Assembly: GCF_028994805.1 (NCBI RefSeq)
Contig: NZ_JAJQQP010000003.1
Location: 95,145-159,144 of the forward strand
Length of the DNA stretch: 64,000 nt
Reading direction: 5' to 3'
From: Promicromonospora iranensis
GTDB taxonomy: Bacteria > Actinomycetota > Actinomycetes > Actinomycetales > Cellulomonadaceae
The notes under the pieces were generated by a model that saw only the letters and a program-made list of their open reading frames with translations, searched no databases and was not told where the DNA came from. How positions within the stretch are numbered: position 1 is the stretch's first letter; each line of letters starts with the position of its first letter. Positions 32,141 through 55,355 of this stretch are shown piece by piece. The position numbers and the translations under genes are program-made.

Positions 32141-32314
32141 GCGGAGCGGCTCGGTCCGCGCGCCGAGTTCATCGACGGGGAGCGTAGTTCCGGTGGCCTG
32201 TTGACGTTCGTGGCCCTGCTCGATAGATCACCCACGGCTCACCTCGACCAGGCTGCGGCAGGCGAGGTTCCGGCTGCCAGACTGGCGGCTTCGCTGACGC
32301 CCCAAGGAGGCACC

Positions 32315-36544: not shown

Positions 36545-37170
36545 TGCCATCTGAGCCGGAGAGAACGTGGCAGGTTCGCTGGTGAGCGGCGGTGGCTTCC
36601 ATGTGGTCGGGATCGTGGGGGTAACCGCCGCTTTTCCGCCCGAACGACACCCTCAGGGCCCGCATCGCCCGTTCGACCGCACCACGGGACGTGCCTGCCA
36701 GGCCGTGTGCAGGCGGCGGAGCTTCCGCCGCCCGCACGGGCCCTCCGGAGTCATCTGGCCTGCGCCCGGTGAACTCGTTGAACGTCCACGCCAGATCGCG
36801 GACCTTGTCCTCGACGTCGGCGTCGGTGATCTTCCGGTCCGCGATACGAGCCGGACGCTTCCACGTCCGGTAGGTCCTCCCTGCGACCTCCCTGCCCTGC
36901 TGGCGCAGGACCCGGAGGATACGCACGACTGCGTAGCCCTGACTCCTCAACTCGTCGATGAACGCGCAGATCAGCGGTTTCGGGGGCCGGGCTGCCCCGG
37001 GAAGAAAATCGAGGCCTTCCGCAGGATCTCGTTGTCTTCCCGCAACTGCTTGAACTCGGCCTTCAAGCGTGGACCTCGGCGGACTCCTCACGGGTGACAC
37101 CGGGCCGGGTTCCGTCGTCGACGTCGGCCTGAGCCAGCCAACGCCGCACCGGCTCCTTCGATGCACCTTA
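36545..37170 (-). mobile_element. IS3-family insertion sequence remnant
   Basis: On the minus strand, in broken frames, it reads the end of an OrfA (PVRRWLAQADVDDGTRPGVT, then FKQLREDNEILRKASIFFP) followed by the start of an OrfB (CAFIDELRSQGYAVVRILRVL, RTYRTWKRPAR, DKVRDLAWTFNEF, AGTSRGAVERAMRAL). At least two frameshifts are present and the DDE catalytic domain is missing. Both ends are gone, and no inverted repeats were identified. It marks the border of the helicase/restriction block. Confidence 0.8.
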
Positions 37171-37379
37171 CGAGGCCGGCACAGGGCTGGACGTGGACGG
37201 ACGCGAGGAACTGGTCGTCGGGAAGCGGTGACCACATCGGGGTAGCCACTGCTTCCGCGGTCGAAATGGGCGCGGTAATAGCCGCCAGAGGCAGGTTTGC
37301 CCGATACGATCGGCCCAGATTGTTCGCCTTGCGCCAGTTGATCACCCAACTCAGAGCCGCACCTCCAGGGGGAGTCCAC

Positions 37380-38501
37380 TTGTCGTTCGTGCCCCGCGAA
37401 TCCGTCCGTTTCGGTCTCGATCATCTCGCCATCCGTCTCGACCCGATCATCGGCCAAGGTCTCGCGGCCGACCTGAACGGGCTCCCGTGGACTGTCGTCC
37501 TAACCGAGCTCGATCGTTCGCGAGGCAAGCAGCCGCGCGACTACAACGCGAAGGACGTCCAGTGCCAGTTGCGGATGCTGAGTGAGAGGCTCGGGAACCT
37601 CGGCTATCCGTTCGACAACCACGCCCGCCTGGTCAGCACCCTTGCGAACGAGTTGCGCATCGTCCGCAACGCGGAGAAGCACTACGACGAACTCACGACC
37701 ATGGACGCTTGGCGTGCGCATGACACCTGCGTTCGTCTCCTGACCCACTTCGAGGACGTTCCCGGTGCTGAGGTCGCCGCCTCCTTTCGTGACGAGGCAA
37801 TCGCAGCGGTCGTCGCTGAATCAGGGACCCCTGTTAGCCCGGTGGCCCACAACGACGCGCTCGGAGCTGTGAAGGTCGAAGAGGTTCTCCCCGAACCGAT
37901 CGACGGCGCGAATGTCGACGACGAGTATGTTGCGCCATCGGAGGACGTCCTCACCCGAGCAGATGGCAATGACACCCCGACGATCGGCACTGAGCGCTCG
38001 ATGTTTGAGCCGTGGGTCCCGGTAGTGGTCGGCGAAGTCGGCATGCTGGACAACGTGGCGCGCAAGGTAAACAAGGATCGGGTGCGTGCTGTCGCAACCG
38101 AGATTGCTGAGTTCGAGGGGCCGATTCACATCGACCGCCTCATCACTCTGGTAGCTGCGTCCTTCGAGGTTCCCCGCTTGACGACAAAGCGTCGTCAGAA
38201 GGTCGACCGTCAGGTACGCCAGCTCGACCTTTATCTCGACGCTGACCTGTTCCTCTGGCCCAGCAGTATCGACCGTGACTCCTGGACGGAGTTCCGGCCG
38301 AACATCAGTACGACGAACCGCGAGTTCCTCCACATCAGCCCAGTCGAGATCGCCAACGCCTCCCGCTTCATCGAGAAGCGGTCGCCTGCCATCACGTCCG
38401 ACGAGCTCGATGTGGACACTCTTCGTACCTTCGGACGCAAGAGGCGTACCAAGGCTGTCGCTACACACCTCGAATCGGCTCGAATGCTGGCAGAATCCTG
38501 A
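37380..38501 (+). CDS. Swt1-type HEPN ribonuclease with DUF3320-like C-terminus
   Basis: 373 residues if TTG 37380 is the start: AGGGGGAG lies 5 bases before it, and the longer open frame upstream (to 37161) is low-complexity and abuts the IS remnant. Residues about 20-125 match the Swt1-type HEPN domain (WTVVLTELDRSRGK, QCQLRMLSERLGNLGYPF) with the Rx4H nuclease motif at Arg96-His101. Around 235-300 a DUF3320-like winged helix follows (VATEIAEFEGPIHIDRLITLV). HEPN proteins cut RNA, often tRNA or mRNA, in toxin and phage-defence systems. It is convergent with the restriction operon, 17 bases apart. Confidence 0.75.
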   Translation: MSFVPRESVRFGLDHLAIRLDPIIGQGLAADLNGLPWTVVLTELDRSRGKQPRDYNAKDVQCQLRMLSERLGNLGYPFDNHARLVSTLANELRIVRNAEKHYDELTTMDAWRAHDTCVRLLTHFEDVPGAEVAASFRDEAIAAVVAESGTPVSPVAHNDALGAVKVEEVLPEPIDGANVDDEYVAPSEDVLTRADGNDTPTIGTERSMFEPWVPVVVGEVGMLDNVARKVNKDRVRAVATEIAEFEGPIHIDRLITLVAASFEVPRLTTKRRQKVDRQVRQLDLYLDADLFLWPSSIDRDSWTEFRPNISTTNREFLHISPVEIANASRFIEKRSPAITSDELDVDTLRTFGRKRRTKAVATHLESARMLAES

Positions 38502-38518: not shown

Positions 38519-40621
38519 TCAGTCGGTGCCGAGCTGAAACTCGTACGCCTGGCGCACAAGTCCCATGATGTACATGAAGTCGGAGCCCTCGTCGAGCGTC
38601 ACCTCGGTCGGCCCGTTTCCCCAGTGACCCTTTCCGCTGACGTCGTAGGCGAGCTCCCGGTCGTCGTGGAGCGCCTCGATGGGCAAGTTCAGACTCAGTC
38701 GGAGCCGGCCAACCTGAGGCACGACATCGACGAAGTTCGTCTCCGACTTGAATGCGACATACAGCTTGAGGAACGTCCGAGTGACCCCAGGATCGAGCGC
38801 AAATACCTCGGTGGTGAACCGGTCGAAGAGCTGTCGCCGCTGTGGCGGTAGCAGGTTTGGGTGGTCTTCGATGGTGAACCCAGTGGCTGACTTCGGTGGT
38901 GCGAAGGAGGCAGCCAGACCAGCGTCGAGCGTGGGTCTCGCCCAGATGGCGACGGCACGGTCAGCGAGTAGATCTGCACGTGCCTCGATCTGCTCCGGTC
39001 CCCACGTCTCGAGTTGGCCGAGGCCTCTGTTGAGCCGGAGTGGAGAGTCTTTGAACCCGCCCTCCATGTCACGCTTCTTCTCGAACGGGTGATCCGAGTA
39101 CTCAGAGTTGTATCCCGTGAGCGTGAGGTTGCCGAGCGTGTGCAGGTACTTCGCCTGTGTCTCCTGCCAGTTCTCACCTAGCGCAGCTCGCCATGCGGCC
39201 GAGAGGTTCTCGTTCTGCGGCAGGATGTGTTCGATCGTGTAGTCCTCGATCGAGACGTGTTCTTTGCGCCCGTGGTTCTCGAGAACTCTGAGGAAGTATG
39301 ACCTGCGCTGGAAATGGTAAAGGTCGGTCGTCCGAAGGGCATCGGTGAACTCGGCGTCACTCGGGAGAGTTCGGTAGCTCTTCATGCCGAGGAAATGCGC
39401 CTTGACGCTGTCGACGTACCGGTCCTTACGAATCGACTTGCTGAATGTGGCAAACGTCGTGTTCAGCGAGTTCGTCGGGATTCGGCACACAGCACGCCGG
39501 AAGATGTACGCGGTGACCATCTCGACGATTTCAAGGAGCTCAGCCTCTGAGAGGATACCGAGCTCGTGGTCCGTGTACGCCTCTAGCAGGAACGGATAGA
39601 CGACATCAGCCTTGATCTGGTCTAGGTCCTTGAACGCGGTCCGAAGCACGGGCCGTTCCTCCTGGCCGAGGGCGATGGCACAGTATCGCCGGGAGTACTC
39701 CCGAAGCCGCACGACGAGGTCACTCACCGACTCCCCAGCCATCGCCACGTCCCGGGCGTAGTCCTTGAACGCCTCGTAGATGTCGCCGACACGCGGGATA
39801 CTACCGGTTGTCACGGTCAGGAAGTGGCGTACGAATTGGTCAAACTGGACCTCGTACGCGCCCGCGCCGAAGTCGATCTCCATCGGTCGCCAGTACCGGG
39901 TGTACAACTTCTCCTGCGCGCTGGGCTTCAGATCCATCAGAACGAAGTTGCGGATCAAGTCGGCCTGCGAGAGCTTCTTGCCAGTCGAGTTCATTGCTTC
40001 GAAGACGAGCTGTGGGTTGTCGACTCCTCGCTCGAGGTGAACGTCGACAACGACTAGCTTGGCGAGACCACGGCAGATGACCGCGAGGTCGGCAACAGGC
40101 GCGGTGAGGAAACGACGGATGAGCTCGTAGTTCTCTACGACCCGGCTCGACGCGTGATCCTCCAAGCCAGCCTGGTCGATCACAGCGAACAGCGCGGTGC
40201 GGTCGCCCTGCGACAAGACGAGCTTGTATCGGCGGTCGTCCTCCTCGTCGTCGTTGAGCAGGTACCGGTTCCGGATCTTCCTCGGCGAGAACCCGTCCAC
40301 GGGTTCTCGCTGGTCCTCAGGCAGGCCCGCAAGATGCGCTGTGAGCGCCGCCAAAATCAGCGTTACCGTGGTGACGCGCTGCTGGCCGTCGATGATGAGG
40401 TTCGGCTCGATATCAGTGATGGCGCCTTGTGCCTTCTCGACGTAAACGACCGATCCTGTGAAGTGTGCACCGAGCGAGTCGTTCGACCCCGCTCGCAGGA
40501 TGTCGGACCAGAGCTGCTCGACCTCGCTCCGGGTCCACGCATACGCCCGCTGGTAGATCGGGACGACGAACTGGTTGCTCTTCTTTAGCAGCGTGAGTAG
40601 CTGCGTGTCGACAGCCTTCAT
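38519..40621 (-). CDS. DUF262-DUF1524 (GmrSD-like) HNH nuclease
   Basis: 700 residues. The N-terminal DUF262 has the ParB-like DGQQR motif (78-82), linked to NTP use in GmrS. The HNH-type DUF1524 domain has EHILPQN (464-470), His494 and GNLTLTGYN (497-505). A C-terminal DUF5655-like domain follows (about 600-700). GmrSD enzymes restrict DNA with modified cytosines in an NTP-dependent way. Here it is the last gene of the restriction operon, joined to res by a 4-base ATGA overlap, so it may act as a second nuclease of that system and not as a free-standing type IV enzyme. Confidence 0.88.
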   Translation of the reverse strand: MKAVDTQLLTLLKKSNQFVVPIYQRAYAWTRSEVEQLWSDILRAGSNDSLGAHFTGSVVYVEKAQGAITDIEPNLIIDGQQRVTTVTLILAALTAHLAGLPEDQREPVDGFSPRKIRNRYLLNDDEEDDRRYKLVLSQGDRTALFAVIDQAGLEDHASSRVVENYELIRRFLTAPVADLAVICRGLAKLVVVDVHLERGVDNPQLVFEAMNSTGKKLSQADLIRNFVLMDLKPSAQEKLYTRYWRPMEIDFGAGAYEVQFDQFVRHFLTVTTGSIPRVGDIYEAFKDYARDVAMAGESVSDLVVRLREYSRRYCAIALGQEERPVLRTAFKDLDQIKADVVYPFLLEAYTDHELGILSEAELLEIVEMVTAYIFRRAVCRIPTNSLNTTFATFSKSIRKDRYVDSVKAHFLGMKSYRTLPSDAEFTDALRTTDLYHFQRRSYFLRVLENHGRKEHVSIEDYTIEHILPQNENLSAAWRAALGENWQETQAKYLHTLGNLTLTGYNSEYSDHPFEKKRDMEGGFKDSPLRLNRGLGQLETWGPEQIEARADLLADRAVAIWARPTLDAGLAASFAPPKSATGFTIEDHPNLLPPQRRQLFDRFTTEVFALDPGVTRTFLKLYVAFKSETNFVDVVPQVGRLRLSLNLPIEALHDDRELAYDVSGKGHWGNGPTEVTLDEGSDFMYIMGLVRQAYEFQLGTD

Positions 40622-43600
40622 GCCCGTCCTGCCTGGTCCATGACACCGTCGGCGTCGTCCATTGTCGAAACCACCGCGTACGAGAGATCCGGTAGGCCAA
40701 GGCGCTCGGCGACAGTCGTGAAGTGCAGCTTGCCAGCGATCGTCTTGGGCTCCTGGAAGTCGGCGAGAAGCGTCGTGTTCGTGGTGCCCTTCGTCTCGAA
40801 GACGATGTAGCGACTGCCGTCAGGCAGCTCGACCATGACGGCCCAGTCAGGGTTGTAGCTCCCGAACGGGGTCGGTACGAGGAACCTAGACGGGAGCTTG
40901 ACGAAGGCCTTGACATCCTCGCGGCGGAGCAGGTTCAGTGCGAACTCCTTCTCCACGGTGGAGTCGACGACGACGTGCGCGTAGGGCGACTTGGCGCCGA
41001 AGTCGATCGCCTTCCCTTCCTGATCGGAGATGACGTTCCCCCCGTTGCCGACGTATCCGTGCAGGTCTTCGGTAGCCAGCAGCGTCTGTGGGTACCAGCG
41101 TTCGTGGTCGGGCCGGCTATCGGCAACCAGGTCGTACTGGAGCCCCTTGACGAGGAACTGTTCCTTGGTCTCGTTGAGCATCCGCGACACCCGGTCCACG
41201 TAGGCCTGCGGATTGTCACGGAATTGCTGGAGCGTGCCCGAGTCGGTCAGGACGTGCGCGATGGTCGTCCGGGTGAGCTGAGTCCGGTCGGCGAGAACCG
41301 AGAGGATGTCGGGCAGGTCCTCGCTATCCGCGTAGGTGACGTCCGCCCGCCGAACCTTGGCGAGTTCGGCGCTCAGTCCGCTCTGGTCTATCTTCTCGAC
41401 ACGGGACGTCTGCCACTCACCCTTGCGCTTCGGCACAGGGTTGTCGCGGAGTGACGTCTTGAGGCGCTGGACGAGCGTGCCGCGCAGTTCGTCCTCGTCC
41501 ACTTGGACGCGGTACTCGGTGCGGTGTCGAACGCGGTCCCACAGCGCCTGGAACTCGGGGCTGTCCAGCCGGTCCTGGGCGACAGGGATGAGAACACGCT
41601 CGGCCGCCTTCTTGATATCGATCGGCTTCGCGAGACGCTTGATCAGGCCGAGCAGCGCAACCTGACCTGCCTCCTGCGGCACGACGGCGGATACGAGCGC
41701 CCGCAGTTCTTCGTCGTCCTCCTGGACGGCCTTACGCAATGCCTCCTGGACACCGCCGGCCGGGTCGATGTAGCCGCCCATGACAAGGCTGGTGAAGAAG
41801 CTCTGAGCGGCGGCGTTGCCGACTGGGACAGTGACACCTCCCGCGGACGGGTCCTTGAACGTCAGGCGCGAAAACCCATCGACCGTGACCTTGCCGAACT
41901 CGATACCAAGATCGTCGGCCAGCTCGTGCTGGAGGCGATCGGCAAACTCTTCGTACGACTCGTTCGCTATCACCGTGAGCCGGTTGACGCCGAATCCGCG
42001 CAGGCGGTTGCCGTTTCCGTCGACGCAGAGCCGCAGGCCGCGGCCGATGCTCTGCCGCCGCCACCGCTCGGAGCCCATGTTCCGCAGCACGCAGATCTGG
42101 AAGACGTTCGGGTTGTCCCAGCCCTCCTGAAGCGCGGAGTGGCTGAAGATGAACCGGATCGGGGTTCCTGGGGTGGTGAGCCAGGCCTTGCGCTTCATGA
42201 TCTGCTCGTAGGCAAGCTCTGCCTGCTGCCGACCGGATGCGGAACGCTCCGAAGTTTCGACGAACCGCTCCGCGCCGGTTTTCTTGTTCCGGTCTACCGA
42301 GAAATAGCCCTGGTGAGCCTCAGCGGCGATGGCGTCCGCGGCACGGTCGTCGAGGAGCGTCGTGAACTCCGGCAGCTTCGCGATGCGCGCGTATTCTTCT
42401 TCGAAGATCCGCGCGTACTCCCCTCTTTGCGCAATGCCATCCTCGTCGTAGACGCGGTACTTCGACACCGAGTCGACGAAGAACAGGCTGAGCACCTTGA
42501 TCGGCAAGCCGCTGAGATGGAACTCCTGCTCCTTGCGCAGGTGCTGTTGAATGGTCTGGACAATCATCTGCCGGGCACGTTCGCCGGAGTTCACCTCGGA
42601 GCCAATCGGGTCGCCGGGGTGTAGAGGTTGCGCCACGGTATCGAACCGGATCCGTTCCGGGGCGACACTCAGTTCGGTGACCGTCAGATCCTTGTACAGG
42701 TCTCGACCGGTGACGTACTGGAGGTTGTCCCCGTCGCGAACCGTCACTACCTTGCGGACGATCTTCCCGCCCTGCTCCACGTCGACCTCGACGCGGGCGC
42801 TAAATTGTCCCGCGCTGCGCTTCACACTCTTCAGCTGGACATAGGGTTGCGTACCGCTCGACTCCGTCACGAGCGAGTCGACCTCGATCTGCTTGACCAG
42901 CTGCTGCTCGTAGGCGGCGATCGCGTCGAGCCGGTAGATGAGGTTGCCCTTGTCGAACTTCGGGTGGGTCGCCGAGTAGCGCAGTACGGCCAGCGGGTCG
43001 AACTTTTCGATCGCAAGGCGGCCGGCGCCCTTCTTCTTGCGGGGATTCCCGTCGTCGCCGTAGACGCTTTGTGGCTCGTCCACGATCACGATGGGCCGGG
43101 TGGCGCTGATCAGATCGATCGGCTTCTCGTCGTCAAGGTCCTCGGACGGCTTGTGGATCGTATTTGACGCCTTGTTGATCGCGGCCACGGTCACGACCAT
43201 GATCTCGATCCCCGATGACGTGGCGAACGACCGGACACGCGACGGGTTGTTGCCGTCGTACTGGAAGTACTGCATCGGCTGGTTGCCGTAGAGGCCGCCG
43301 AAGTGCTCCTTGAGCATTGCGAGGGAAGCGAGTACGCCCTCCTTGATCGCGACGGACGGCACCAAGACCACGAACTTGGTGAACCCGTAGAGCTTGTTCA
43401 GTTCGTAGATTGTCCGCAGGTAGACGTAGGTCTTGCCTGTGCCCGTCTCCATCTCGATCGTGAAATTCATCGAGTCGAGCGACGGTTCCGGTGCCAGTCC
43501 GGTGGCGTCCTGCACCCTCCTGAGGTTCTCGTGGATCGTGTCTGGGTCCAGCACGAGCCGGTTCGCGATGCCCGCGTCGGCCAGCCCCTGGAAGCCCGCG

Positions 43601-43725
43601 TGGAGCGACGGGTGGGCGTACACGTCGAAGGCGCCAGTCATGGCGTCCTGCCCGCGGAACAGGCCCGTCACCGCGTCGATGGCATGCCGCTGGTAGTCGA
43701 GGTTGGCCTCGAAGGAGAACTTCAT
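40618..43725 (-). CDS. Type III restriction enzyme Res subunit
   Basis: 1035 residues. A superfamily 2 helicase with Walker A METGTGKT (92-99) and an unusual motif II, DEPQ (216-219), typical of Res subunits. The C-terminus carries the PD-ExK nuclease: Asp960 in YNPDWAV and Glu977-Thr-Lys979 in VFETKG. With Mod it cleaves DNA at pairs of unmethylated asymmetric sites using ATP. Its ATG directly abuts the Mod stop codon and its stop overlaps the DUF262 gene start, so the three are cotranslated. All catalytic motifs are intact. Confidence 0.93.
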   Translation of the reverse strand: MKFSFEANLDYQRHAIDAVTGLFRGQDAMTGAFDVYAHPSLHAGFQGLADAGIANRLVLDPDTIHENLRRVQDATGLAPEPSLDSMNFTIEMETGTGKTYVYLRTIYELNKLYGFTKFVVLVPSVAIKEGVLASLAMLKEHFGGLYGNQPMQYFQYDGNNPSRVRSFATSSGIEIMVVTVAAINKASNTIHKPSEDLDDEKPIDLISATRPIVIVDEPQSVYGDDGNPRKKKGAGRLAIEKFDPLAVLRYSATHPKFDKGNLIYRLDAIAAYEQQLVKQIEVDSLVTESSGTQPYVQLKSVKRSAGQFSARVEVDVEQGGKIVRKVVTVRDGDNLQYVTGRDLYKDLTVTELSVAPERIRFDTVAQPLHPGDPIGSEVNSGERARQMIVQTIQQHLRKEQEFHLSGLPIKVLSLFFVDSVSKYRVYDEDGIAQRGEYARIFEEEYARIAKLPEFTTLLDDRAADAIAAEAHQGYFSVDRNKKTGAERFVETSERSASGRQQAELAYEQIMKRKAWLTTPGTPIRFIFSHSALQEGWDNPNVFQICVLRNMGSERWRRQSIGRGLRLCVDGNGNRLRGFGVNRLTVIANESYEEFADRLQHELADDLGIEFGKVTVDGFSRLTFKDPSAGGVTVPVGNAAAQSFFTSLVMGGYIDPAGGVQEALRKAVQEDDEELRALVSAVVPQEAGQVALLGLIKRLAKPIDIKKAAERVLIPVAQDRLDSPEFQALWDRVRHRTEYRVQVDEDELRGTLVQRLKTSLRDNPVPKRKGEWQTSRVEKIDQSGLSAELAKVRRADVTYADSEDLPDILSVLADRTQLTRTTIAHVLTDSGTLQQFRDNPQAYVDRVSRMLNETKEQFLVKGLQYDLVADSRPDHERWYPQTLLATEDLHGYVGNGGNVISDQEGKAIDFGAKSPYAHVVVDSTVEKEFALNLLRREDVKAFVKLPSRFLVPTPFGSYNPDWAVMVELPDGSRYIVFETKGTTNTTLLADFQEPKTIAGKLHFTTVAERLGLPDLSYAVVSTMDDADGVMDQAGRA

Positions 43726-45738
43726 TCAGATGCTCCGGAAGGTCGTGAAGCCGGCTTGCTTGACGGCGGCGTCGAGGTTGAGTTTCGCTGACGAGTCAGC
43801 AAAGCCCGTGTCGCGGACGACGATGGTTATGTCGGACTCGACCGGGTTCTCGTCCCGCCACTCCACGAGCGCGCGGGCGACCTCATTTGACTCCTCCGTG
43901 GTGACGTTCTCTCCGAAGAATGCGTACAACGTGCCGTGGCCGAGGCAGTACAGATTGCTGCCCGCCACGGGGCGGGTGTCGACGGGCGTCGTCAGGTCGA
44001 TACCGAGGCGCAGCATCGTCTCAACCAGCAGGTCGTCGGTGGTGCGGCCCTCGACGAGGTTGTCGACTGCCTCGATCAGGCTCAGTTCGCCTGTGCCGTC
44101 CCACGGGCGGATGTTCGACGGCGCGAGCCGGTAGGACCGGAAGCCGAGGTCAATCTCCGCTGACTCCAGGGTGAGGCCCTCCGCGATCCTCTTGCTGGCG
44201 CGGCGCAGGCGCTCGCGTGTGATGTCCGCGATCGACTTGTAGCCGTCCTTGTTCACCGGCTCATCGAGCTGGACCAGGACGTATCGGCGATTGCCGCCAT
44301 CAGTAGCATTGAGGTCCATGACCGCATGGCCCGTAGAGCCGGAGCCAGCGAAGAAGTCGAGGACGAGGGCGTCCTTGCTTGATCGGGTCACCAGGTCGAT
44401 CCAGCGAGCTAGGACTTCGGTGTCCTTGGGGAACTCGAATGGTGCGTCGCCGTTGAAAAGCTCCTTGAGTCGACGACCTGCATGGGTCCGCTGTCGTTCG
44501 AACACCGACATCACAACCTGCCCCGTGACATCCTCCAGGCGCTTCTTCAGCGAGATTGGTTTTGTGTGGTCGTCGCGGAAAATTACCTGACCCGCGGTGA
44601 TGGCCTCCTGCATGCGCTCTGGTGTCGCATACAGCCAGCCCCGCTCAGGTACAGGAACTGGGTAGCCCGTCTTTGGGTGCAGGACGTCGTACTTCGGGCC
44701 CTTTCCACCGGGCCATGTGATGTTGTCGTCGCGGGCCAGTCCGCCATCCGGCAAGAAGTAGGTGTACCGAGCCATGGCCTGAATGGGTGAGTCTTCTCCC
44801 TGAGACTTGAACCACCCCTGCATGATCTTGCGAGCGCGAACCTCGTCGCCATCGGCTTCGATCCACGCGTTTCGGCCAGCGTCAAGGACTTCGTGCACCC
44901 CGGGCTTCGTCTCGCGCCAGCGGATATCAGCTTGGCGCAGAGCACCTTCGCTCTTGGCGTACACAAGCATGTAATCGTGGCCCACGGATATGTACCGCGA
45001 GTCGTTTTTTCGCCCCCCCTGCCAGACGGCGCTCGCGATGAAATTCTCTGCCCCGAATACCCGGTCAAGTAGCAGCTTCAGCCGCGCGTGCTCTGTGTCG
45101 TCGATTGCCGCGATGAGAACACCCGTCTCCTTGAGGAGTGAGTGCGCGACTAGAAGCCGTGGGTACATCATTGACAACCACTTGGCGTGAAGATTAGCGG
45201 ACTGGCGCCGTTCCTCTGCGCGGTCGGAACCCTCGCCCGTCTGAGTGGCGCCCTCGTTGTCGCGTAGGCCGGCATCTGCCTCGTGCTCAGCGACGGTCGA
45301 ACTCCGCTTGTCCTCGTACACGAAGTCACTGCCGGTGTTGTACGGCGGGTCGATGTAGATCACGTCGACCTTGCTCGTGTACCCGCGGCGCAGGAGTCGC
45401 AGCACCTCAAGGTTGTCGCCCTCGATGACGATGTTCTTCGTGCTGTCCCACTCCACGGACTCGTCGGGCCGGGGGAGGAGCGTGCTCGTGGCAGGCACGG
45501 TGGACAGCCGGCGTGCTTCGGCTATCCCGACCCACCGCAGGCCCGATGTTTCGGTCCCGGACGCCTCGGCCTGCTCACCCAGGAGGTCGCGGAGAACGTC
45601 GAGGCTGACGCGCCCGTCCACGACCGCGTCGGGGAAGAGCTCGGCGAGCACGGCGACATTGCTGCGTGCCTCACCTGGGCCGGTCAGCTCCTTGATGGGC
45701 GTGTAGTCGATGTCCTCGAGATCGTGGTGCGTGGTCAC
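43726..45738 (-). CDS. Type III Mod DNA methyltransferase (N6-adenine, beta class)
   Basis: 670 residues from GTG 45738 (GCAGGAGG 6-7 bases upstream, GTGA overlap with the DUF4391 gene). The catalytic motif DPPYNT is at 130-135, and the AdoMet-binding motif FAGSGSTGHAV (463 onwards) comes after it, the beta-class order of type III Mod. The region between them (about 240-440) is the likely target-recognition domain. The final 130 residues are extra. It would methylate adenine in one strand of the recognition site. The site cannot be read from sequence. Confidence 0.93.
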   Translation of the reverse strand: MTTHHDLEDIDYTPIKELTGPGEARSNVAVLAELFPDAVVDGRVSLDVLRDLLGEQAEASGTETSGLRWVGIAEARRLSTVPATSTLLPRPDESVEWDSTKNIVIEGDNLEVLRLLRRGYTSKVDVIYIDPPYNTGSDFVYEDKRSSTVAEHEADAGLRDNEGATQTGEGSDRAEERRQSANLHAKWLSMMYPRLLVAHSLLKETGVLIAAIDDTEHARLKLLLDRVFGAENFIASAVWQGGRKNDSRYISVGHDYMLVYAKSEGALRQADIRWRETKPGVHEVLDAGRNAWIEADGDEVRARKIMQGWFKSQGEDSPIQAMARYTYFLPDGGLARDDNITWPGGKGPKYDVLHPKTGYPVPVPERGWLYATPERMQEAITAGQVIFRDDHTKPISLKKRLEDVTGQVVMSVFERQRTHAGRRLKELFNGDAPFEFPKDTEVLARWIDLVTRSSKDALVLDFFAGSGSTGHAVMDLNATDGGNRRYVLVQLDEPVNKDGYKSIADITRERLRRASKRIAEGLTLESAEIDLGFRSYRLAPSNIRPWDGTGELSLIEAVDNLVEGRTTDDLLVETMLRLGIDLTTPVDTRPVAGSNLYCLGHGTLYAFFGENVTTEESNEVARALVEWRDENPVESDITIVVRDTGFADSSAKLNLDAAVKQAGFTTFRSI

Positions 45739-46499
45739 TGCTGTGCCTCCTGCTTCGGGGTGCTCGCCGCGTACAGCGAGCCTCGGACGCTGTCGATCTC
45801 GGTGCGCAGGCTCTTGGCTCGCGTGTTGAGGTCGATCCTTCGTTGCATGTTCTTCTCTCGGCCGGCGTCGCGCACGACGGCCACAAGCTCGGCGTCGAGT
45901 GCCGCGAGCCGCTGCCGGAGCGCGACAGCTTCGGCCGCCGTCAGCGCGACGGAGGCTGGTTTGCCGTTCGCCGCGACGGTCCGGACTAGGTCGCGGTGGA
46001 GTGCGGCGAGGTCGGTCTGTGCCAACCGCCCGACACGCACCGTTTCTGGTGCGAGATCCTCGATCGGCACCGTGATCGAAACCTCGATCACTGACCTGCC
46101 CTCCTCGGTCTTGCTGAGGCGGGTGAGCGCCAGGGAGAGGTGCGTGCCGCCGTCTGGTACGACCAAGCCGATGATCGCCGGACGCGGCATGGACCGGTGC
46201 AGAAGCTCGGCGGCGCGGATGCGATCGGGCTGCTTGGCTCGCTCCACGAGCTGCACCTCGAGTACAGGGATCATGTCGACGCGGTGGTCGTCGTCCGCGA
46301 AGCCCCGGACCCCGATTGTCTGAGGGCTCAGGACGCCGACGATTGTCGCTTGAGCGATCACCTTCGTGAGTAGCCGGGCATCCGCCGGGGACTCGTCCCA
46401 CTGCGCAGCGATGTCCTTCTTGGTCAGACGATGAGTCTGGCGCGTCGCGGCGACAGGCAGAGCCAGAAGGCCAGGCAAGTCGATCAGTTCAGCGGTCAC
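45735..46499 (-). CDS. DUF4391-domain protein
   Basis: 254 residues from a GTG that overlaps the stop of the helicase gene (GTGA). The family is known by this pattern: LPVAATRQTHRLTKKDI, DDHRVDMIPVLEVQL, and a predicted coiled-coil C-terminus (LRQRLAALDAELVAVV). Its biochemical role is unknown. From memory, DUF4391 genes are often found between SNF2-like helicase and Mod genes in type III-like loci. Both ends overlap neighbours, so it is made in fixed proportion with them. Confidence 0.8.
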   Translation of the reverse strand: MTAELIDLPGLLALPVAATRQTHRLTKKDIAAQWDESPADARLLTKVIAQATIVGVLSPQTIGVRGFADDDHRVDMIPVLEVQLVERAKQPDRIRAAELLHRSMPRPAIIGLVVPDGGTHLSLALTRLSKTEEGRSVIEVSITVPIEDLAPETVRVGRLAQTDLAALHRDLVRTVAANGKPASVALTAAEAVALRQRLAALDAELVAVVRDAGREKNMQRRIDLNTRAKSLRTEIDSVRGSLYAASTPKQEAQQ

Positions 46500-49400
46500 G
46501 GGATTACCGCCACCCAGGCGACAACGTCGACAGACTCCAAACCTGGCACCGATGCGTCCGTCCCAAGGAGGGAAGGACCCGATGCGAAGATCGACGCTGC
46601 GAGCTTCTGCTCCGCCTGTCCGGACGCCGCCCGGACAGCCGCGTCGAGGAGGCCCTGGTAGTGCTTCATGCTGCGGCCCTGCCGCGTCGCCCTCTCGAAA
46701 TCGGCGATAACTTCGGCACCAGGTTCGGTGCCGTCCAGGCAGTGGCGACGGAGCACGTCAAGTGCGCGCTTCGGCTCCTCGACCGGATGAGCGAGGCTGC
46801 CGTTGTCGGACACGTATGCGAGGACGTACGGAGCGAGAGGGTACGCCGCGGAGAACGCGAAGGCGTCGTCGCGGACGTGCAGGAGGAAGACGGCGCCTGG
46901 CGCCAAGTTGTCGCTCGTGAGCCCCTGATCAAAGCGGGTCACGCCGAACAGCGCCTGAGGCCACTGCTTGAGGCGCGCCAGCTCACCGCGTGGCCGCGAG
47001 GCGGCATCCATCCGAAAGTCCGAGAGGGTCAGGTCTGTAATCGACAACCCTCCCGCAAGGTCCTCCATCGTGGGGGCTGAGGTTTGGAGCTGCTGGAGCT
47101 GCTTGCGACGGTAGTCCAGGTCATTCATCTCGGAGTCGTCCAGGACGTTTTCCTCACCCGTCGCGGAGACATCGAGAAGCTTCATGCGGCTGGAGACACG
47201 GCCCTCGAGGTTGATGTACGAGTCGAGGTCGGGCGTCGGCCAGAAGTTGACCAGCTGGACCGACTCGTTCGTGGTCCCGAGACGGTCCACGCGGCCGAAC
47301 CGCTGGACGATGCGCACGGGGTTCCAGTGGATGTCGTAGTTGACGACGGTGTCGCAGTCCTGGAGGTTCTGGCCCTCGGAGATCGTGTCCGTCGCGATGA
47401 CGAAGTCGATCTGAGGCCCGTCGAGGTCTCCCCCCTTGGAGCGCGGCGAGAAGGCAGTGAGCACCGTGTGCATCTCGTGGCGTACCGGGGCAGTGGTCCT
47501 GGTCTTGCTGCCCGTGATGAGGGCGGTGTGCACGCCCAGCTCGCGGGCCGCCCAGTCAGCGATGTGGTCGTAGAGGTACTCGGCGGTGTCGGAGAAAGCG
47601 GTGAAGACGAGAGCCTTGCGGTTGCCGTCATTCGTCGGTTTCTCGGCCTTCTCCTGGAGGAACTCCTTGAGCTTGGCGAGCTTGGCATCGCGGTCGGCGT
47701 CTACCTGGCTTACTTCGTCGAGCAGCCCGGCGATTGTGGCACGGTCCTCTTGGAGGTCCTGTCGCCACCGGCGACGGTCGAGATCTTGGACGAAGACCTT
47801 GACGTTTCCACCGACAGTATCCTCCAGCTCTGGGTCGTCCAGACCGAGGCTGAGTGCGGCGCTGTCGTCGCCGATCGACGCTCCCGGAGCGGAGCGCGTG
47901 TCGAATTCGTCGATCCGCTGGATGGCCGCGTCGATCGTCGTCAGGATCTTGGTCAGCGTCATGCCGAGGGACTGCACGGACGACTCGAGGCGCTTGAGCA
48001 GACCGACGCGGAGCAGGTGAACCACGTTGTTCTCACGGTCCGTCTGGACCCACTTGCGCTTTCCGCCGGTGCGGAGGGCCTGGTCGTAGAGCGAAGCGTA
48101 CTTCTCATGATGGACCGGGAGCACATAGGACGTGGGCTTGTAGGCGGCGAGTGTGAGCCGGAGGATCGCGCGGTTGATCTGCTCGAGCGAGATCATCGCG
48201 TCGGCCAGGTCGATCCCTGGGGTCAGGTTCCTTGGGGCCTTCCGTACGGGGAACTTGCCCGTGTCCTCAGTGCCGTAGTACTTCTCGATGTGCTTGCGCG
48301 AGCGGGCGATGGTTACCAGGTCGAGCAGGCGGATGTAGTCCATGCCGAGAGTGCCCACGAGGGATTTCGCCGTTCGCTGTGACTCGGGCATCTTCTGCCA
48401 GGCGTTGAACCGTGTCTGCGCCTGACGCAGGGTCACGGCGATGTCCTTGATGCCCTCCGAGCCGAGCGCCTTGTCGTCGCCCTCCGTCGCAAAGAGAACC
48501 TGATTGCGTAGATCCGCAAGGCGGGTGTTGACCGGGGTGGCGCTCAGCATGAGGACCTTGGTCTTCACACCTGCCTTGATGACCGCCTCCATGAGTCGTT
48601 CGTAGCGAGTGGTGCGATCGGCAACCTGAGGGTTGTTGCGGAAGTTGTGCGATTCATCGACCACTACCAGGTCGTAGTTGCCCCACGCGATGTTCGCCAG
48701 GTCGATGTCCCCAGACTTGCCGCGCGTGCGCGACAGATCAGTGTGGTTCAAGACATCGAAACTGAACCGGTCCGTGACCAGCGGATTGCGGGAGTCGTTT
48801 GCGCGGTAGAGGGTCCAGTTCTCCCGGAGGCGTTTTGGCGCCAGGACGAGGACGCGGTCGTTGCGCAGCTCGTAGTACTTGATGACTGCGAGGGCCTCGA
48901 AGGTCTTACCGAGGCCGACACTGTCGGCGATGATGCATCCGTTGTGCCGCTCTAGCTTCTCGATCGCGCCGAGGACGCCGTCGCGCTGGAACTTGTAGAG
49001 CTTCTTCCAGACTGCGGTGTCGTAGAAGCCGGTCAGGCCGCGCGCCTCGGTTTCCTCGCCCGACTCCTCAACGAAGTCCTTGAAGAGCGAGATGAGAATG
49101 CGCAGGTAGACGGACTCTGGCGCGTTGTCGCGGAACAGAGCGCGGGCTGCTCCGAGGAATTCCTCCTGTGCGCTCTTCGTGGCGGTCGCGTCGTGCCATA
49201 GCCGGTCGAACTGGAGCGCCACCTGCTTCACTTGGTTCACGTCCGTGAGCTCCTGCGGGAAGTGCAGGTCCGGTGAGGTGACTAGGCCGAGGCTCTCCGC
49301 CTCAAGGCCGGCGCCCTTGACCGCGTAGGGAAAGGGCCCTTCGACTGCGGTCCACGCCTCACGCGTGCGGCGGTTGAGCGTCCGTACCTGCATCGTCCGC

Positions 49401-49660
49401 TCGGCCCATGTCACAAATTCGCGCGCAACACGGTGCTGATCCAGGCGGGAGCGGAACAGATTCTCCTCGCTCAAGCCGTTCAACCGGTGGGTCTCGAGGC
49501 TGTTCTCCCAAAGGATCAACCGCAGTTCGTCATCCGCGAGCTCGTCCTTCAGCTCGTCGTAGACGTAGATCGAGAATGACTCGGACAGTGCGTCCAGACG
49601 CGCGGCGCCCGTGAGGTGCTTGCGCAGGCGGTCGATCGGACGCCCGGCGTCATCGGTCAT
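46496..49660 (-). CDS. SNF2-like helicase of the restriction operon
   Basis: 1054 residues from the ATG at 49660 (GGAGG 9 bases upstream). Superfamily 2, SNF2 group: ADSVGLGKTFEAL (near residue 237), VVVDESHNFRN, MLSATPVN, and in the C-terminal lobe ATDTISEGQNLQD with RFGRVDRLG. An extra N-terminal region of about 200 residues (SFSIYVYDELKDELADDELRLI) resembles that of helicases carrying a degenerate PLD-like module, but no HKD motif is seen. It begins the five-gene operon and could be the translocase that senses or remodels DNA for Mod/Res. Confidence 0.85.
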   Translation of the reverse strand: MTDDAGRPIDRLRKHLTGAARLDALSESFSIYVYDELKDELADDELRLILWENSLETHRLNGLSEENLFRSRLDQHRVAREFVTWAERTMQVRTLNRRTREAWTAVEGPFPYAVKGAGLEAESLGLVTSPDLHFPQELTDVNQVKQVALQFDRLWHDATATKSAQEEFLGAARALFRDNAPESVYLRILISLFKDFVEESGEETEARGLTGFYDTAVWKKLYKFQRDGVLGAIEKLERHNGCIIADSVGLGKTFEALAVIKYYELRNDRVLVLAPKRLRENWTLYRANDSRNPLVTDRFSFDVLNHTDLSRTRGKSGDIDLANIAWGNYDLVVVDESHNFRNNPQVADRTTRYERLMEAVIKAGVKTKVLMLSATPVNTRLADLRNQVLFATEGDDKALGSEGIKDIAVTLRQAQTRFNAWQKMPESQRTAKSLVGTLGMDYIRLLDLVTIARSRKHIEKYYGTEDTGKFPVRKAPRNLTPGIDLADAMISLEQINRAILRLTLAAYKPTSYVLPVHHEKYASLYDQALRTGGKRKWVQTDRENNVVHLLRVGLLKRLESSVQSLGMTLTKILTTIDAAIQRIDEFDTRSAPGASIGDDSAALSLGLDDPELEDTVGGNVKVFVQDLDRRRWRQDLQEDRATIAGLLDEVSQVDADRDAKLAKLKEFLQEKAEKPTNDGNRKALVFTAFSDTAEYLYDHIADWAARELGVHTALITGSKTRTTAPVRHEMHTVLTAFSPRSKGGDLDGPQIDFVIATDTISEGQNLQDCDTVVNYDIHWNPVRIVQRFGRVDRLGTTNESVQLVNFWPTPDLDSYINLEGRVSSRMKLLDVSATGEENVLDDSEMNDLDYRRKQLQQLQTSAPTMEDLAGGLSITDLTLSDFRMDAASRPRGELARLKQWPQALFGVTRFDQGLTSDNLAPGAVFLLHVRDDAFAFSAAYPLAPYVLAYVSDNGSLAHPVEEPKRALDVLRRHCLDGTEPGAEVIADFERATRQGRSMKHYQGLLDAAVRAASGQAEQKLAASIFASGPSLLGTDASVPGLESVDVVAWVAVIP

Positions 49661-49927: not shown

Positions 49928-51901
49928 CTACCGTTTCCGCGGACGCAGCTCCTCCGGGAGCGGCTTGCTATGCACGACGGCCAGCTCCCTGTTGGGACGC
50001 GTCAGTGATGTGTACAGGGGCCCCCGGCGACCGAAGTTCTCCGGGAAATCGGCCGGTTCGCTGACTACGACGCCGTCGAACTCAAGTCCACGTGCCTCGT
50101 CGGGCTGCAGGACGACGACCTGTCGGTCGGCTCTGTCCCAGAAACGCTGGTCACCCCGCCGCGCCTGCCAGCCTTCATTACGAAACAGCGATCGGATACG
50201 GGAGGGATCGACGTCGATCACGGCGACCGTGCCCTTCGGATAGGTGCTCAGCAGCCGGTCGACCTCACTGCGCACCGTGATGGCAAGCTCCTCCCGCCCA
50301 GCACGAGTGATCACTGGAGCTGGTCCGTCCTTCTGGAATGCGAGGAGTGCGCGTTCCTCCTTGCGCAGGAGCCGGTTCGCGTACTCCAGGATTGGGAGAG
50401 TCGACCGATAGCCCCGCTCGAGCCGCTCGAGCCGGAGATCGACGTCGGGGTACTCGATGACTGCGGCCACGTGCTTCCAGGAAGCAAGAGTATGGTCCGA
50501 TCGGCGTTGGTTGAGATCGCCGAGGATCGTCCACGCATCTGCTTCGTTCAGCGCGGCGAGCAGCATCCACTCCAGAGCGGTGGCGTCCTGAGCCTCGTCG
50601 ACCATGACATGTTCGATGCCCTGCAGCTCCCGTGCCGGTGCCACCGTCCAGCGGATGAAGGCGAGCAGCGGAATGTGCGCGCGCAGCGTGAGCGCGAGGT
50701 CGTACGCCGGAAGCTTCCGTAGGTATGTCGCCCATTCGACGTCTGGTGCCACGAGCCCTAGCCGGAGTGCTTCGTACGCGCGTTGCGTGGTCGGTGTGAT
50801 GCCCTTGCGCTGGCGCTCGGCGAAGATGACCTTGAGCGCGATCTTCCCCAGTTCTTCGTCGACGTCGCGCCACGTCCGGGACGCCGGGCCCTTTGGCTCC
50901 AACTTGAGTTCCAGAACACGGGCCATGAGGGAGGGCAGAGATCTCACGATGACCCGGTCCGAGCCACCGGACAGCGTGTCCACGACGCCCCGCACGTGAT
51001 CGCTGTACGCGTCAGTAGGCCCGACAAGGAGCACGTTCTTGTCGAGAGAGTTCTCCAGCGGGGTGTCGTCGTTGATCATGTAGGCGGCCCTGTGCGACGC
51101 GACGATCGTCTTCCCCGTACCGGGCTGCCCTTCGATCACGACGCTCTCCATAGCGGGGAGCGTGACCAGGGTGTATTGGTCTGGTTGGAGAGTCGAGAGG
51201 ACGGGCGCGAGGCTCTTGGTGCGTGGGGCCGCCAGGCGAGACCGCAGCAATGACTCGGCTCGAAGCGCAGGCGCCTGGCGCCTTCCTCGTTCACCAGCGG
51301 GAGCGCTGGTCGTTACTGTTGCGTGGCTCGCCGCCGCGATGGCCTCGTCTTCAGTTGCCGTGCCTGGAGGCTGCGCGGCCTTCTGGGCGTCTCCGGGCCT
51401 ACGCAAACCACCTGGCCGCGCGCGTCCAGCGGCTGGCGGGGCGGGGACTGAGAGCCCTCGTCGTCGGAAAGGCTCGCCGGTGACATCCGTTCGTAGGACG
51501 TCGTCTGCGATGTCGTTGATGCCCTTGCTCCCGTGCGCGAAGCTACGGACGACCGCGACCTCTTCGCAGAACTCATGATGGTCGAAACCGCGGAAGTAGG
51601 TGCAGGCAACAGGCGCAGCCCAGCTAAAGACCTCCTGGCCGTCGAGATTCAGATGGCGCTCGCCGATGTAGAAGTCGCTCGCGCCGCCGAGCTCCTCGCG
51701 TGGACCGACCAGCGAAACCCGGCCGACCAAGAAGCCGAGGGGAACTTCGGGAAGCGTGGGGAGACCATCACCAGTCCATATCGTGTTCCGTGCGCCCTGA
51801 AAGTAAACAGGTTGTCGGGCCCGCGAGCTGAGCATCTGGACGTAGCGCTTCTCGGCTGCGCGTTCGTTCTCGATCTCGAGTGTCTTCGTCTGGGGATCCA
51901 T
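49928..51901 (-). CDS. HelD/HelR-like UvrD-family ATPase, short form
   Basis: 657 residues from the ATG at 51901 (GAGGATGAG upstream). The N-terminus matches the HelD/HelR family (ERAAEKRYVQML; FYIGERHLNLDGQEVFSWAAPVA), followed by Walker A EGQPGTGKT (about 261), motif II VMVDEAQDA, GDLNQRRSDHT and a C-terminal LEFDGVVVSEP. HelD/HelR proteins free stalled RNA polymerase; here the region between residues 150 and 225 is a Pro/Ala-rich replacement of the usual sequence and the protein is shorter than typical. It follows the SNF2 helicase gene by 41 bases, so it may have been recruited as a nucleic-acid motor in defence. Confidence 0.75.
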   Translation of the reverse strand: MDPQTKTLEIENERAAEKRYVQMLSSRARQPVYFQGARNTIWTGDGLPTLPEVPLGFLVGRVSLVGPREELGGASDFYIGERHLNLDGQEVFSWAAPVACTYFRGFDHHEFCEEVAVVRSFAHGSKGINDIADDVLRTDVTGEPFRRRGLSVPAPPAAGRARPGGLRRPGDAQKAAQPPGTATEDEAIAAASHATVTTSAPAGERGRRQAPALRAESLLRSRLAAPRTKSLAPVLSTLQPDQYTLVTLPAMESVVIEGQPGTGKTIVASHRAAYMINDDTPLENSLDKNVLLVGPTDAYSDHVRGVVDTLSGGSDRVIVRSLPSLMARVLELKLEPKGPASRTWRDVDEELGKIALKVIFAERQRKGITPTTQRAYEALRLGLVAPDVEWATYLRKLPAYDLALTLRAHIPLLAFIRWTVAPARELQGIEHVMVDEAQDATALEWMLLAALNEADAWTILGDLNQRRSDHTLASWKHVAAVIEYPDVDLRLERLERGYRSTLPILEYANRLLRKEERALLAFQKDGPAPVITRAGREELAITVRSEVDRLLSTYPKGTVAVIDVDPSRIRSLFRNEGWQARRGDQRFWDRADRQVVVLQPDEARGLEFDGVVVSEPADFPENFGRRGPLYTSLTRPNRELAVVHSKPLPEELRPRKR

Positions 51902-51942
51902 CTCATCCTCGGGGTGGTTCCAAAATCTGGTGGACAACGTGC

Positions 51943-55272: not shown

Positions 55273-55355
55273 TGGGCCGGTGCTCCGGCCAGCACGCACT
55301 CGTACTCGGTCTCGAACCTTTGAGGGGCGATCGAGTGGTGGACGACGGGGTTCAT
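55269..55355 (-). CDS. 28-codon ORF translationally coupled to the SNF2 helicase
   Basis: ATG 55355 is preceded at 6 bases by a perfect GGAGG, the best ribosome site in this operon. The ORF encodes 28 residues (starting MNPVVHHSIAPQRF) and its TGA overlaps the helicase ATG (ATGA, 55269-55272). The helicase ATG itself lacks a good ribosome site, so its translation probably depends on reading this ORF. It may be only a coupling leader, or a small functional partner. No family. Confidence 0.5.
   Translation of the reverse strand: MNPVVHHSIAPQRFETEYECVLAGAPAQ

What the first reader, a model, noticed from the sequence alone, without database searches (positions are those of the whole stretch)
38519..49660. 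Five-gene expanded type III restriction operon with two different nucleases
Seen: SNF2-like helicase, DUF4391, Mod, Res and DUF262-DUF1524 genes are joined end to end (GTGA, GTGA, zero spacing, ATGA), with intact catalytic motifs in every enzyme. Known: classical type III systems have only Mod and Res; GmrSD-like DUF262-DUF1524 enzymes are normally separate type IV nucleases, and DUF4391 has no known role. Inference: this is one machine in which the SNF2 motor and DUF4391 protein modify type III restriction, and a GmrSD-like HNH enzyme is added to cut DNA that escapes by modification, or acts as a last-resort nuclease.
Basis: partly seen in the sequence, partly recalled or inferred. Interest (0 to 1): 0.82.

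Follow-up and report, generated by a model that had tools for sequence, protein, structure and literature searches.

The report
Four-gene type III restriction system, plus nuclease
This is a widespread but apparently undescribed four-gene form of a classic bacterial DNA-cutting defence, to which this bacterium has added a fifth, separately acquired enzyme of the kind that cuts chemically modified viral DNA.

Summary
In detail: five tightly joined genes with intact motifs at 38519-49660. Comparison splits them in two.

SNF2-DUF4391-Mod-Res is a stable four-gene unit. In 80 loci found through SNF2, DUF4391 follows in 66 of 66 with 1.5 kb or more downstream; with 3 kb or more, Mod follows in 62 of 62 and Res in 61 of 62, always in this order. 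Key catalytic residues are invariant in the full-length rows aligned. DUF4391 has a confident predicted fold without a solved or viral match at E<=0.001.

GmrSD is not part of that unit. In the nearest relative found, DNA homology stops at the end of Res. DUF262 genes occur in 9 of 105 rows, in four slots, needing nine changes on the tree. Other slot genes include RhuM, DUF1016, Schlafen and Fic. Of GmrSD's close kin examined, most stand alone.

So: an extended type III system carrying a swappable type IV passenger, like tgvAB in a type I operon (PMC11411939). A helicase-Mod-Res group is in print (PMC8259958); my searches found no DUF4391 form.

The parts
46496..49660 (-). SNF2-family ATPase, 1054 aa; N-terminal ~200 residues resemble a phospholipase-D domain that has lost its HxK motif
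   Evidence: Pfam SNF2-rel_dom and Helicase_C; best PADLOC model 'HKD+Snf2'; Walker-A G, G, K, T, the D, E, H of DESH and the Q, R, G, R of QRFGR invariant in 105 aligned rows; fold search hits RapA and other SNF2 motors by E-value, with low whole-chain TM-scores (model pLDDT 73)
45735..46499 (-). DUF4391 protein, 254 aa: mixed alpha/beta core plus C-terminal helical hairpin; function unknown
   Evidence: Pfam PF14335 E 8e-24; AlphaFold2 pLDDT 93, pTM 0.88; no PDB or BFVD match at E<=0.001
43726..45738 (-). Mod: type III beta-class amino-methyltransferase, 670 aa, start GTG overlapping the DUF4391 stop (GTGA)
   Evidence: N6_N4_Mtase; EcoP15I Mod 4zcf E 8e-75 over residues 28-658; DPPY in 82 of 82 aligned rows
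44373..44906 (-). probable target-recognition part of Mod: the one internal stretch of the four-gene part where DNA similarity to nearest relative L039 is lost, suggesting a different recognition site
   Evidence: blastn gap between two flanking matches; assignment to the recognition domain is inference from EcoP15I
40618..43725 (-). Res: type III restriction subunit, SF2 motor plus C-terminal PD-(D/E)XK nuclease, 1035 aa
   Evidence: ResIII and RE_endonuc; EcoP15I Res 4zcf E 2e-49; PD...ExK in 78 of 78 aligned rows
38519..40621 (-). GmrSD-family type IV enzyme, DUF262-DUF1524-DUF5655, 700 aa; accessory gene, start overlaps the Res stop (ATGA)
   Evidence: PDB sequence matches to a solved DUF262 protein and SspE; absent from nearest relative; lowest GC of the five genes, 60.8% against 63.3-67.1%, though GC3 hardly differs (79.3% against 80.0-85.2%)

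Best explanation
Two layers of defence in one transcript. Layer 1 is a four-gene extended type III restriction-modification system. Mod methylates one strand of a short asymmetric site; Mod-Res cuts DNA that lacks the mark (established for EcoP15I, inferred here from homology and intact motifs). SNF2 and DUF4391 are near-obligate partners. My reading is that DUF4391 is an adaptor that brings the SNF2 DNA motor to Mod-Res, adding translocation to restriction, as SNF2 motors are thought to do in DISARM and BREX (inferred, untested; about 0.4 on its own). Layer 2 is a GmrSD-family type IV nuclease that was added after Res. It is expected to use its NTP-binding DUF262 domain to license its HNH domain on DNA carrying modified bases, and to act independently of layer 1 (inferred from TgvAB and BrxU). 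The operon is a dock that swaps such passengers.
For: Unit: DUF4391 66/66, Mod 62/62, Res 61/62 in SNF2-anchored loci with 1.5, 3 and 3 kb downstream, order never broken; SNF2 18/19, Mod 18/18, Res 17/18 from the DUF4391 side; the 80 loci lie in 19 named phyla; same order in named plasmids (with genes inserted). Activity kept: invariant catalytic residues in full-length rows. Passenger: nearest relative has the same four genes but homology ends at 40636, at the end of Res; DUF262 in 9 of 105 rows, 9 changes on the tree, 8 forced by well-supported branches, four slots; 6 of 85 inserted frames match DUF262 against 23 matches in about 130 Mb of 31 of the 80 host genomes; other passengers include RhuM, DUF1016/YhcG, Schlafen, Fic, AAA_13. 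Independence: closest homologue 68% identical and alone; 0 of 11 actinobacterial GmrSD loci with usable flanks have any core gene. Precedent: TgvAB inside a type I operon acts on modified phages (PMC11411939, abstract and section 10); BrxU acts apart from BREX (PMC12707154, passages).
Against: No experiment here shows restriction, methylation or any interaction. Murray et al. saw no peptide of the extra helicase in partly purified Eco86II that still gave partial cutting, so in the three-gene cousins the motor may not be needed for cleavage (PMC8259958, passages and section 17). One SNF2 locus, the archaeal L113, shows no Res in 9.3 kb and Mod in pieces; Mod is in two or more frames in 8 of the 62. 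In most DUF4391 members some polar residues are kept (E76 in 53 and K126 in 52 of 67 rows; both lost in the window), so catalysis by other members is not excluded. GmrSD's start overlaps the Res stop, so the two are probably co-translated, which could mean closer coupling than I propose. Passenger enrichment also reflects the general clustering of defence genes. GC3 of GmrSD is not clearly foreign.
Confidence: 0.68

Rival explanations
1. One five-part machine: GmrSD is an integral effector that Mod-Res-SNF2 activates or aims.
For: ATGA overlap of Res and GmrSD; a GmrSD of the same three-domain type (50% identical) sits between SNF2 and Mod in an E. coli type III operon, and others sit inside related operons.
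Against: Full GmrSD in 4 of 105 rows, one of them split; absent from the nearest relative; position varies; closest homologue alone.
Confidence: 0.1
2. GmrSD is a guard of PrrC type: silent while Mod-Res works, and released when a phage inhibits Mod-Res, killing the cell or the phage.
For: The same slots hold AAA_13 ATPases (a family that covers PrrC and RloC, recalled), Fic, RhuM and SIR2 genes, and PrrC inside a type IC locus is activated by an anti-restriction peptide (PMC12707154, passages).
Against: Close GmrSD kin live without an R-M partner next to them (plasmid gene tables are incomplete, but one search also found no core gene there), and characterised GmrSD enzymes sense modified DNA directly (PMC10952713, PMC12707154, passages).
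Confidence: 0.12
3. SNF2-DUF4391 is a control or protection arm, not an attack arm: it strips Mod-Res from the host's own DNA or delays restriction while a newly arrived system is being established.
For: The unit travels on plasmids (93 plasmid records match the SNF2 protein over at least 80% of its length); Eco86II gave partial cutting with no helicase peptide seen (PMC8259958); SNF2 proteins such as Mot1 or RapA remove bound proteins, and RapA is the top fold hit (function recalled).
Against: Classical type III systems are also mobile without such an arm (recalled); no direct evidence.
Confidence: 0.2

Closest known systems
Classical type III R-M (EcoP15I, StyLTI)
   Same: Mod and Res are homologous, motifs intact
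   Different: Two extra linked genes, SNF2 and DUF4391, upstream; the NCBIfam type III Res model PRK15483 is hit but below its cut-off
Three-gene m4C type III systems with a helicase 5' of mod (Eco86II, BspHIV; PMC8259958)
   Same: Helicase-like ATPase gene before mod and res, of unknown role, consistently close in more than 500 genomes according to the paper
   Different: No DUF4391 is mentioned between helicase and mod in the parts read. The SNF2-Mod-Res loci that I found without DUF4391 (L188, L189, L192, L197) carry another SNF2 subfamily: the L197 protein is 42-57% identical to the other three but only about 29% over short stretches to the window's. That these are Murray's group is inference.
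TgvAB embedded in the VPI-2 type I R-M operon (PMC11411939)
   Same: GmrSD-family type IV enzyme inside a methylation-based R-M operon, complementary targets
   Different: Host is type I, enzyme is two proteins; here type III with SNF2-DUF4391 and a single fused protein plus DUF5655
BrxU (GmrSD beside BREX) and RloF (GmrSD between hsdS and hsdR)
   Same: GmrSD enzyme carried with another defence system (PMC12707154, PMC4619093, passages)
   Different: Different host system
DISARM DrmD, BREX BrxHI/BrxHII, DpdE
   Same: SNF2 motor teamed with a DNA-modification system; the window SNF2 matches NCBIfam DrmD and DpdE far below cut-off and PADLOC DrmD, BrxH and DpdE far more weakly than 'HKD+Snf2'
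   Different: Partner is a type III Mod-Res; none of the five proteins has a DrmA/B/C, PglZ or BrxC model as its best match

Membership tests
Type III restriction-modification | Mod homologous to EcoP15I Mod with beta-class methylase motifs | tested here: met
   4zcf_A E 8e-75, DPPY and FFAGSG
Type III restriction-modification | Res with SF2 motor and C-terminal PD-(D/E)XK nuclease | tested here: met
   4zcf_C E 2e-49; RE_endonuc Pfam; PD...ExK in 78 of 78 aligned rows
Type III restriction-modification | asymmetric site methylated on one strand; cleavage about 25 bp away needing two inverted sites | not testable with these tools
   needs methylome and cleavage assay
Type III restriction-modification | only Mod and Res needed | not tested
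   four genes are linked (61 of 62 loci with 3 kb downstream hold all four); need for SNF2/DUF4391 unknown
GmrSD type IV enzymes | DUF262 with DGQQR and DUF1524 with EHxxP in one protein or pair | tested here: met
   PF03235 E 1e-31, PF07510 E 3e-27; DGQQR at 78, EHILP at 464
GmrSD type IV enzymes | cleaves modified-cytosine DNA | not testable with these tools
   no assay; DUF5655 may change the target
DISARM | drmA, drmB, drmC with a methylase | tested here: not met
   none of the five proteins has a drmA, drmB or drmC model as its best match; SNF2 matches DrmD models and one DrmA model weakly (PADLOC tables show the best 25 models). A stronger DrmD-like gene lies outside the operon at 51943-55398.
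Three-gene helicase-Mod-Res type III (Murray 2021) | helicase gene directly 5' of mod, no gene between | tested here: not met
   DUF4391 lies between SNF2 and Mod in the window and in each of the 68 SNF2-anchored loci that show both DUF4391 and Mod

The most novel reading that the evidence does not exclude
SNF2-DUF4391-Mod-Res is a separate, undescribed subtype of type III restriction in which a DNA motor with a dead phospholipase-D domain and a new-fold adaptor are essential, changing how restriction works (for example cutting at single or wrongly oriented sites), and whose operon is a general docking site for second-line anti-phage genes.
Probability: 0.35. Interest if true: 0.75.

Novelty: new variant of a known kind. 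Interest (0 to 1): 0.56.

Why it matters
Type III restriction has been taken to need two proteins. Here a four-gene form, kept in the same order in bacteria of many phyla and on an archaeal plasmid, carries a motor and a protein of unknown fold and role. That gives DUF4391, which had one incidental mention in the held literature, a concrete function to test. The operon also shows that the passenger habit known for type I loci (PrrC, RloF, RhuM, tgvAB) extends to type III, so its slots can be searched for new defence genes.

Tried and rejected
Rejected: GmrSD as a conserved fifth subunit. Rejected: pure chance neighbour (6 of 85 inserted frames match DUF262; E. coli parallel). Rejected: the operon is DISARM, BREX or Dpd. 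Led nowhere: PDB and viral fold searches with DUF4391 (no match at E<=0.001); profile search of PDB sequences with DUF4391 (two mitochondrial complex I sequences at E 0.013-0.014, taken as chance); the window's DUF4391 against plasmids by tblastn (no match, although the gene is annotated on plasmids, so it is too divergent for that search). A small helix-turn-helix gene before SNF2 was looked for as a further part: it matched in 11 of 99 loci and not in the window.

Cautions on the counts. In one search the label 'DrmDlike' marks the same SNF2 genes, because that home-made model drifted; I merged the labels. My first threshold for Res (9.5 kb, 51 of 51) happened to leave out the archaeal locus L113, which has 9.3 kb and no Res match; the recount at 3 kb is 61 of 62. 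L089 has no DUF4391 before its contig ends 1.4 kb after SNF2 and falls below the 1.5 kb threshold. Of the 80 loci, 61 show all four genes; 18 of the other 19 have under 3 kb downstream. L025 lacks SNF2 and L024 lacks Res in the stretch fetched. L032/L121 and L038/L050 are probably the same contigs (equal contig lengths; the tree counts 104 different rows of 106), so 105 rows are about 103 loci. L062 was added by hand to the post-Res set because my overlap filter had missed it (22 by filter plus 1). The 85 inserted frames are longest open frames of 120 aa or more, not annotated genes. Two of the 23 background DUF262 matches are themselves in the operon (L075, L094). L148 and the window were ascertained through GmrSD, so DUF262 in the rest is 7 of 103 rows, a lower bound because some contigs end early. 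Of the 22 other genomes with a Res match, G173, G383 and G387 were not fetched.
Full report
Observation. Five minus-strand genes lie at 38519-49660: SNF2 (46496-49660), DUF4391 (45735-46499), Mod (43726-45738), Res (40618-43725) and GmrSD (38519-40621). The junctions are GTGA, GTGA, stop next to start, and ATGA. Pfam supports each name. Mod matches EcoP15I over most of its length; Res matches EcoP15I over its motor part, with a weak stretch over the nuclease. Window motifs are intact. Two details were missed: GmrSD ends in a DUF5655 domain, and the SNF2 protein begins with a domain that aligns with the phospholipase-D domain of a PLD-SNF2 protein (L146, Pfam PLDc_2) while relatives of the window protein lack its HxK residues and keep a GSxxFTxxGLG-like stretch. 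The latter is my reading of one alignment, with indirect support from the PADLOC model name 'HKD+Snf2'.

The four-gene core. Home-made profiles were run on all ORFs. DUF4391 follows SNF2 in 66 of 66 loci with at least 1.5 kb downstream; with at least 3 kb, Mod follows in 62 of 62 (in two or more frames in 8) and Res in 61 of 62. The one without Res is the archaeal locus L113, with 9.3 kb downstream and Mod in pieces. L089, whose contig ends 1.4 kb after SNF2, shows a DUF262 gene there and no DUF4391. The order is never broken: DUF4391 after SNF2 in 75, Mod after DUF4391 in 68, Res after Mod in 61. The 80 loci fall in 19 named phyla (two loci without one), one of them archaeal.

Because that sample was drawn by SNF2, I also drew one by DUF4391: 12 other genomes of 395 in the phylum and 7 of 149 in the family have it. 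Of these 19 loci, 18 have SNF2; Mod is in 18 of 18 and Res in 17 of 18 with enough sequence. Named plasmids show the same order in E. coli, Mycolicibacterium, Weissella, Shewanella, Methylotuvimicrobium, Aeromonas and Acinetobacter indicus, and with inserted genes in Acinetobacter gerneri, the archaeon Methanomethylovorans and Sulfitobacter. Desulforapulum and Acetobacter have it with Res broken up. From the Res side, 22 other genomes of the phylum sample match; 11 of the 22 also have DUF4391, though in G346 the two lie far apart. Stretches fetched from 8 of the other 11 and from G346 have no DUF4391; three of these nine have a different SNF2 before Mod. So roughly half of the related type III systems in that sample are of the four-gene form.

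Catalytic residues do not vary in the full-length rows aligned: Res Walker G, G, K, T, then DEP and PD...E.K in 78 of 78; Mod DPPY in 82 of 82; SNF2 Walker G, G, K, T, then D, E, H and the motif VI arginines in 105 of 105 (fragments were left out by length). So the nuclease, methylase and motor appear to be under selection. DUF4391 has 16 columns in which one residue is kept in at least three quarters of 67 sequences, such as P15, K27, P105, P107 and R127, and the window departs from the majority at six of them, E76 and K126 included. I take this to suit a structural rather than catalytic role, but catalysis by other members is not excluded. Its model is confident (pLDDT 93, pTM 0.88), ends in a long helical hairpin, and has no match at E<=0.001 among PDB chains or viral models. 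That no fold match was found is not proof of a new fold; a library of cellular models was not available.

GmrSD is a passenger. The nearest relative found (L039, another genus of the same family) is 74, 54, 65 and 77% identical in SNF2, DUF4391, Mod and Res. Its DNA similarity to the window stops at window 40636, just inside the end of Res, and it has no GmrSD there. The one internal break, 44373-44906, lies in Mod where the recognition domain is expected. GmrSD has the lowest GC of the five genes (60.8%), but its third-position GC is close to theirs. On a FastTree of SNF2, DUF262 genes mark 9 of 105 rows and need 9 changes, 8 forced by well-supported branches; shuffled labels need 8.8 on average, so the label is not clustered at all. 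They occupy four places: between SNF2 and DUF4391, between DUF4391 and Mod, between Mod and Res, and after Res. A full DUF262+DUF1524 protein occurs in the window, L062, L148 and, split into two frames, L040; the others have DUF262 alone (for L148 the profile and BLAST matches cover both parts, but Pfam was not run on it).

What else sits in the slots. Among 62 frames inserted between core genes, Pfam finds RhuM 4, DUF1016 4, GmrSD_N 4, Schlafen AlbA_2 4, Fic 3, Bro-N 3. Among 23 frames right after Res it finds SMC_N 4, AAA_21 4, AAA_13 2, GmrSD_N 2, SIR2_2 2 (several families can mark the same protein). AAA_13 covers PrrC/RloC-like proteins (recalled). In 31 of the 80 host genomes, about 130 Mb, 23 DUF262 matches pass the cut-off, so 6 of 85 is a strong excess over random genes, though not necessarily over defence islands in general. 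RhuM, Fic and PrrC genes in R-M operons are in print (PMC3710099, passages), as is GmrSD beside type I and ResIII genes (PMC4619093, passages).

Where this GmrSD type lives otherwise. Its closest homologue found, 68% identical over all 700 residues, stands alone on an Arthrobacter plasmid. Others: inside a type I operon in Ruegeria; alone, with a type I system nearby, in Sulfitobacter; alone in Planktothrix, Aminobacter, Picosynechococcus and two Deinococcus plasmids; alone beside hsd genes in E. coli; one record without annotation, where no core gene was found. Plasmid gene tables are incomplete, but the core-gene profiles found nothing near these either, apart from distant SNF2 genes in Picosynechococcus and Deinococcus. 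In the actinobacterial sample 14 of 396 genomes match, the window's own included; of the 13 others, 11 have usable flanks and none of the 11 has a core gene nearby. One parallel stands out: an E. coli chromosome has HTH, SNF2, GmrSD, Mod and Res in a row; that GmrSD is 50% identical to the window's and has the same three domains, but the SNF2 is of another subfamily and there is no DUF4391.

Mechanism. Shown: gene linkage, homology, intact residues, repeated gain (or loss) of DUF262 genes. Inferred from EcoP15I: Mod marks and Mod-Res cuts unmarked DNA. Inferred, with about 0.4 belief: SNF2 and DUF4391 add translocation to restriction; 0.2: they protect or regulate. Inferred from TgvAB and BrxU: GmrSD cuts modified DNA on its own.

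Comparison with print. Murray et al. 2021 (PMC8259958; passages and section 17 read) describe a helicase-like gene directly 5' of mod, close to mod and res in more than 500 genomes, whose product was not seen in partly purified Eco86II that still gave partial cutting. My three-gene loci probably belong there (inference). DUF4391 occurs in one held paper, as a table entry unrelated to restriction. Searches for type III with SNF2, DUF262, accessory or additional genes gave no description of the four-gene form in the listings seen and the papers opened; one search listed 15 of 17 papers and one search listed 10 of 42. Subscription papers and REBASE were not available.

Verdict. A real, widespread, apparently undescribed variant of type III restriction, with a swappable type IV passenger.

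Noticed in passing
window 49928-55398 (-): A HelD-like UvrD-type helicase and a DrmD-like SNF2 protein lie 5 bp apart just upstream of the operon, on the same strand; the NCBIfam DrmD model matches below cut-off. They look like a separate defence pair.
   Followed up: partly
window 37161-38501 (+): HEPN_Swt1 plus DUF3320 protein facing GmrSD, 17 bp between the two stops; its end resembles the C-terminus of antiphage ProA, below cut-off.
   Followed up: no
window 32201-33184 (+): Protein with a NOV_C (NO VEIN C-terminal) domain in the same island.
   Followed up: no
window 10278-12020 (+): Protein with T7SS-signal-like and pretoxin HINT domains, polymorphic-toxin-like.
   Followed up: no
L023, L033: Two Mod genes in tandem inside the four-gene operon, perhaps giving two specificities.
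   Followed up: no
L106 13235-14658: Two DUF4391 frames in tandem, one weakly scoring.
   Followed up: no
L113 9938-20247: Archaeal (Methanobrevibacter curvatus) locus with SNF2 and DUF4391, Mod in three pieces and no Res in 9.3 kb: a decayed or altered form.
   Followed up: partly
L038 12879-17381 (probably the same contig as L050): A 1501-aa protein 5 bp after Res with a sub-threshold HATPase_c_3 match; MORC-like proteins near R-M genes are in print (PMC2292703, passages).
   Followed up: partly
L041 10768-10965, L045 10555-10740 and nine other loci: Small helix-turn-helix gene just before SNF2 in 11 of 99 loci tested, a possible operon regulator.
   Followed up: partly
L188 2335-8268: Two different SNF2-like helicase genes in a row before Mod-Res, without DUF4391.
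   Followed up: partly
L197 6052-15961: E. coli STEC309 chromosome: SNF2-GmrSD-Mod-Res operon beside yicC, near-identical DNA in 2 of 5,426 E. coli genomes.
   Followed up: yes
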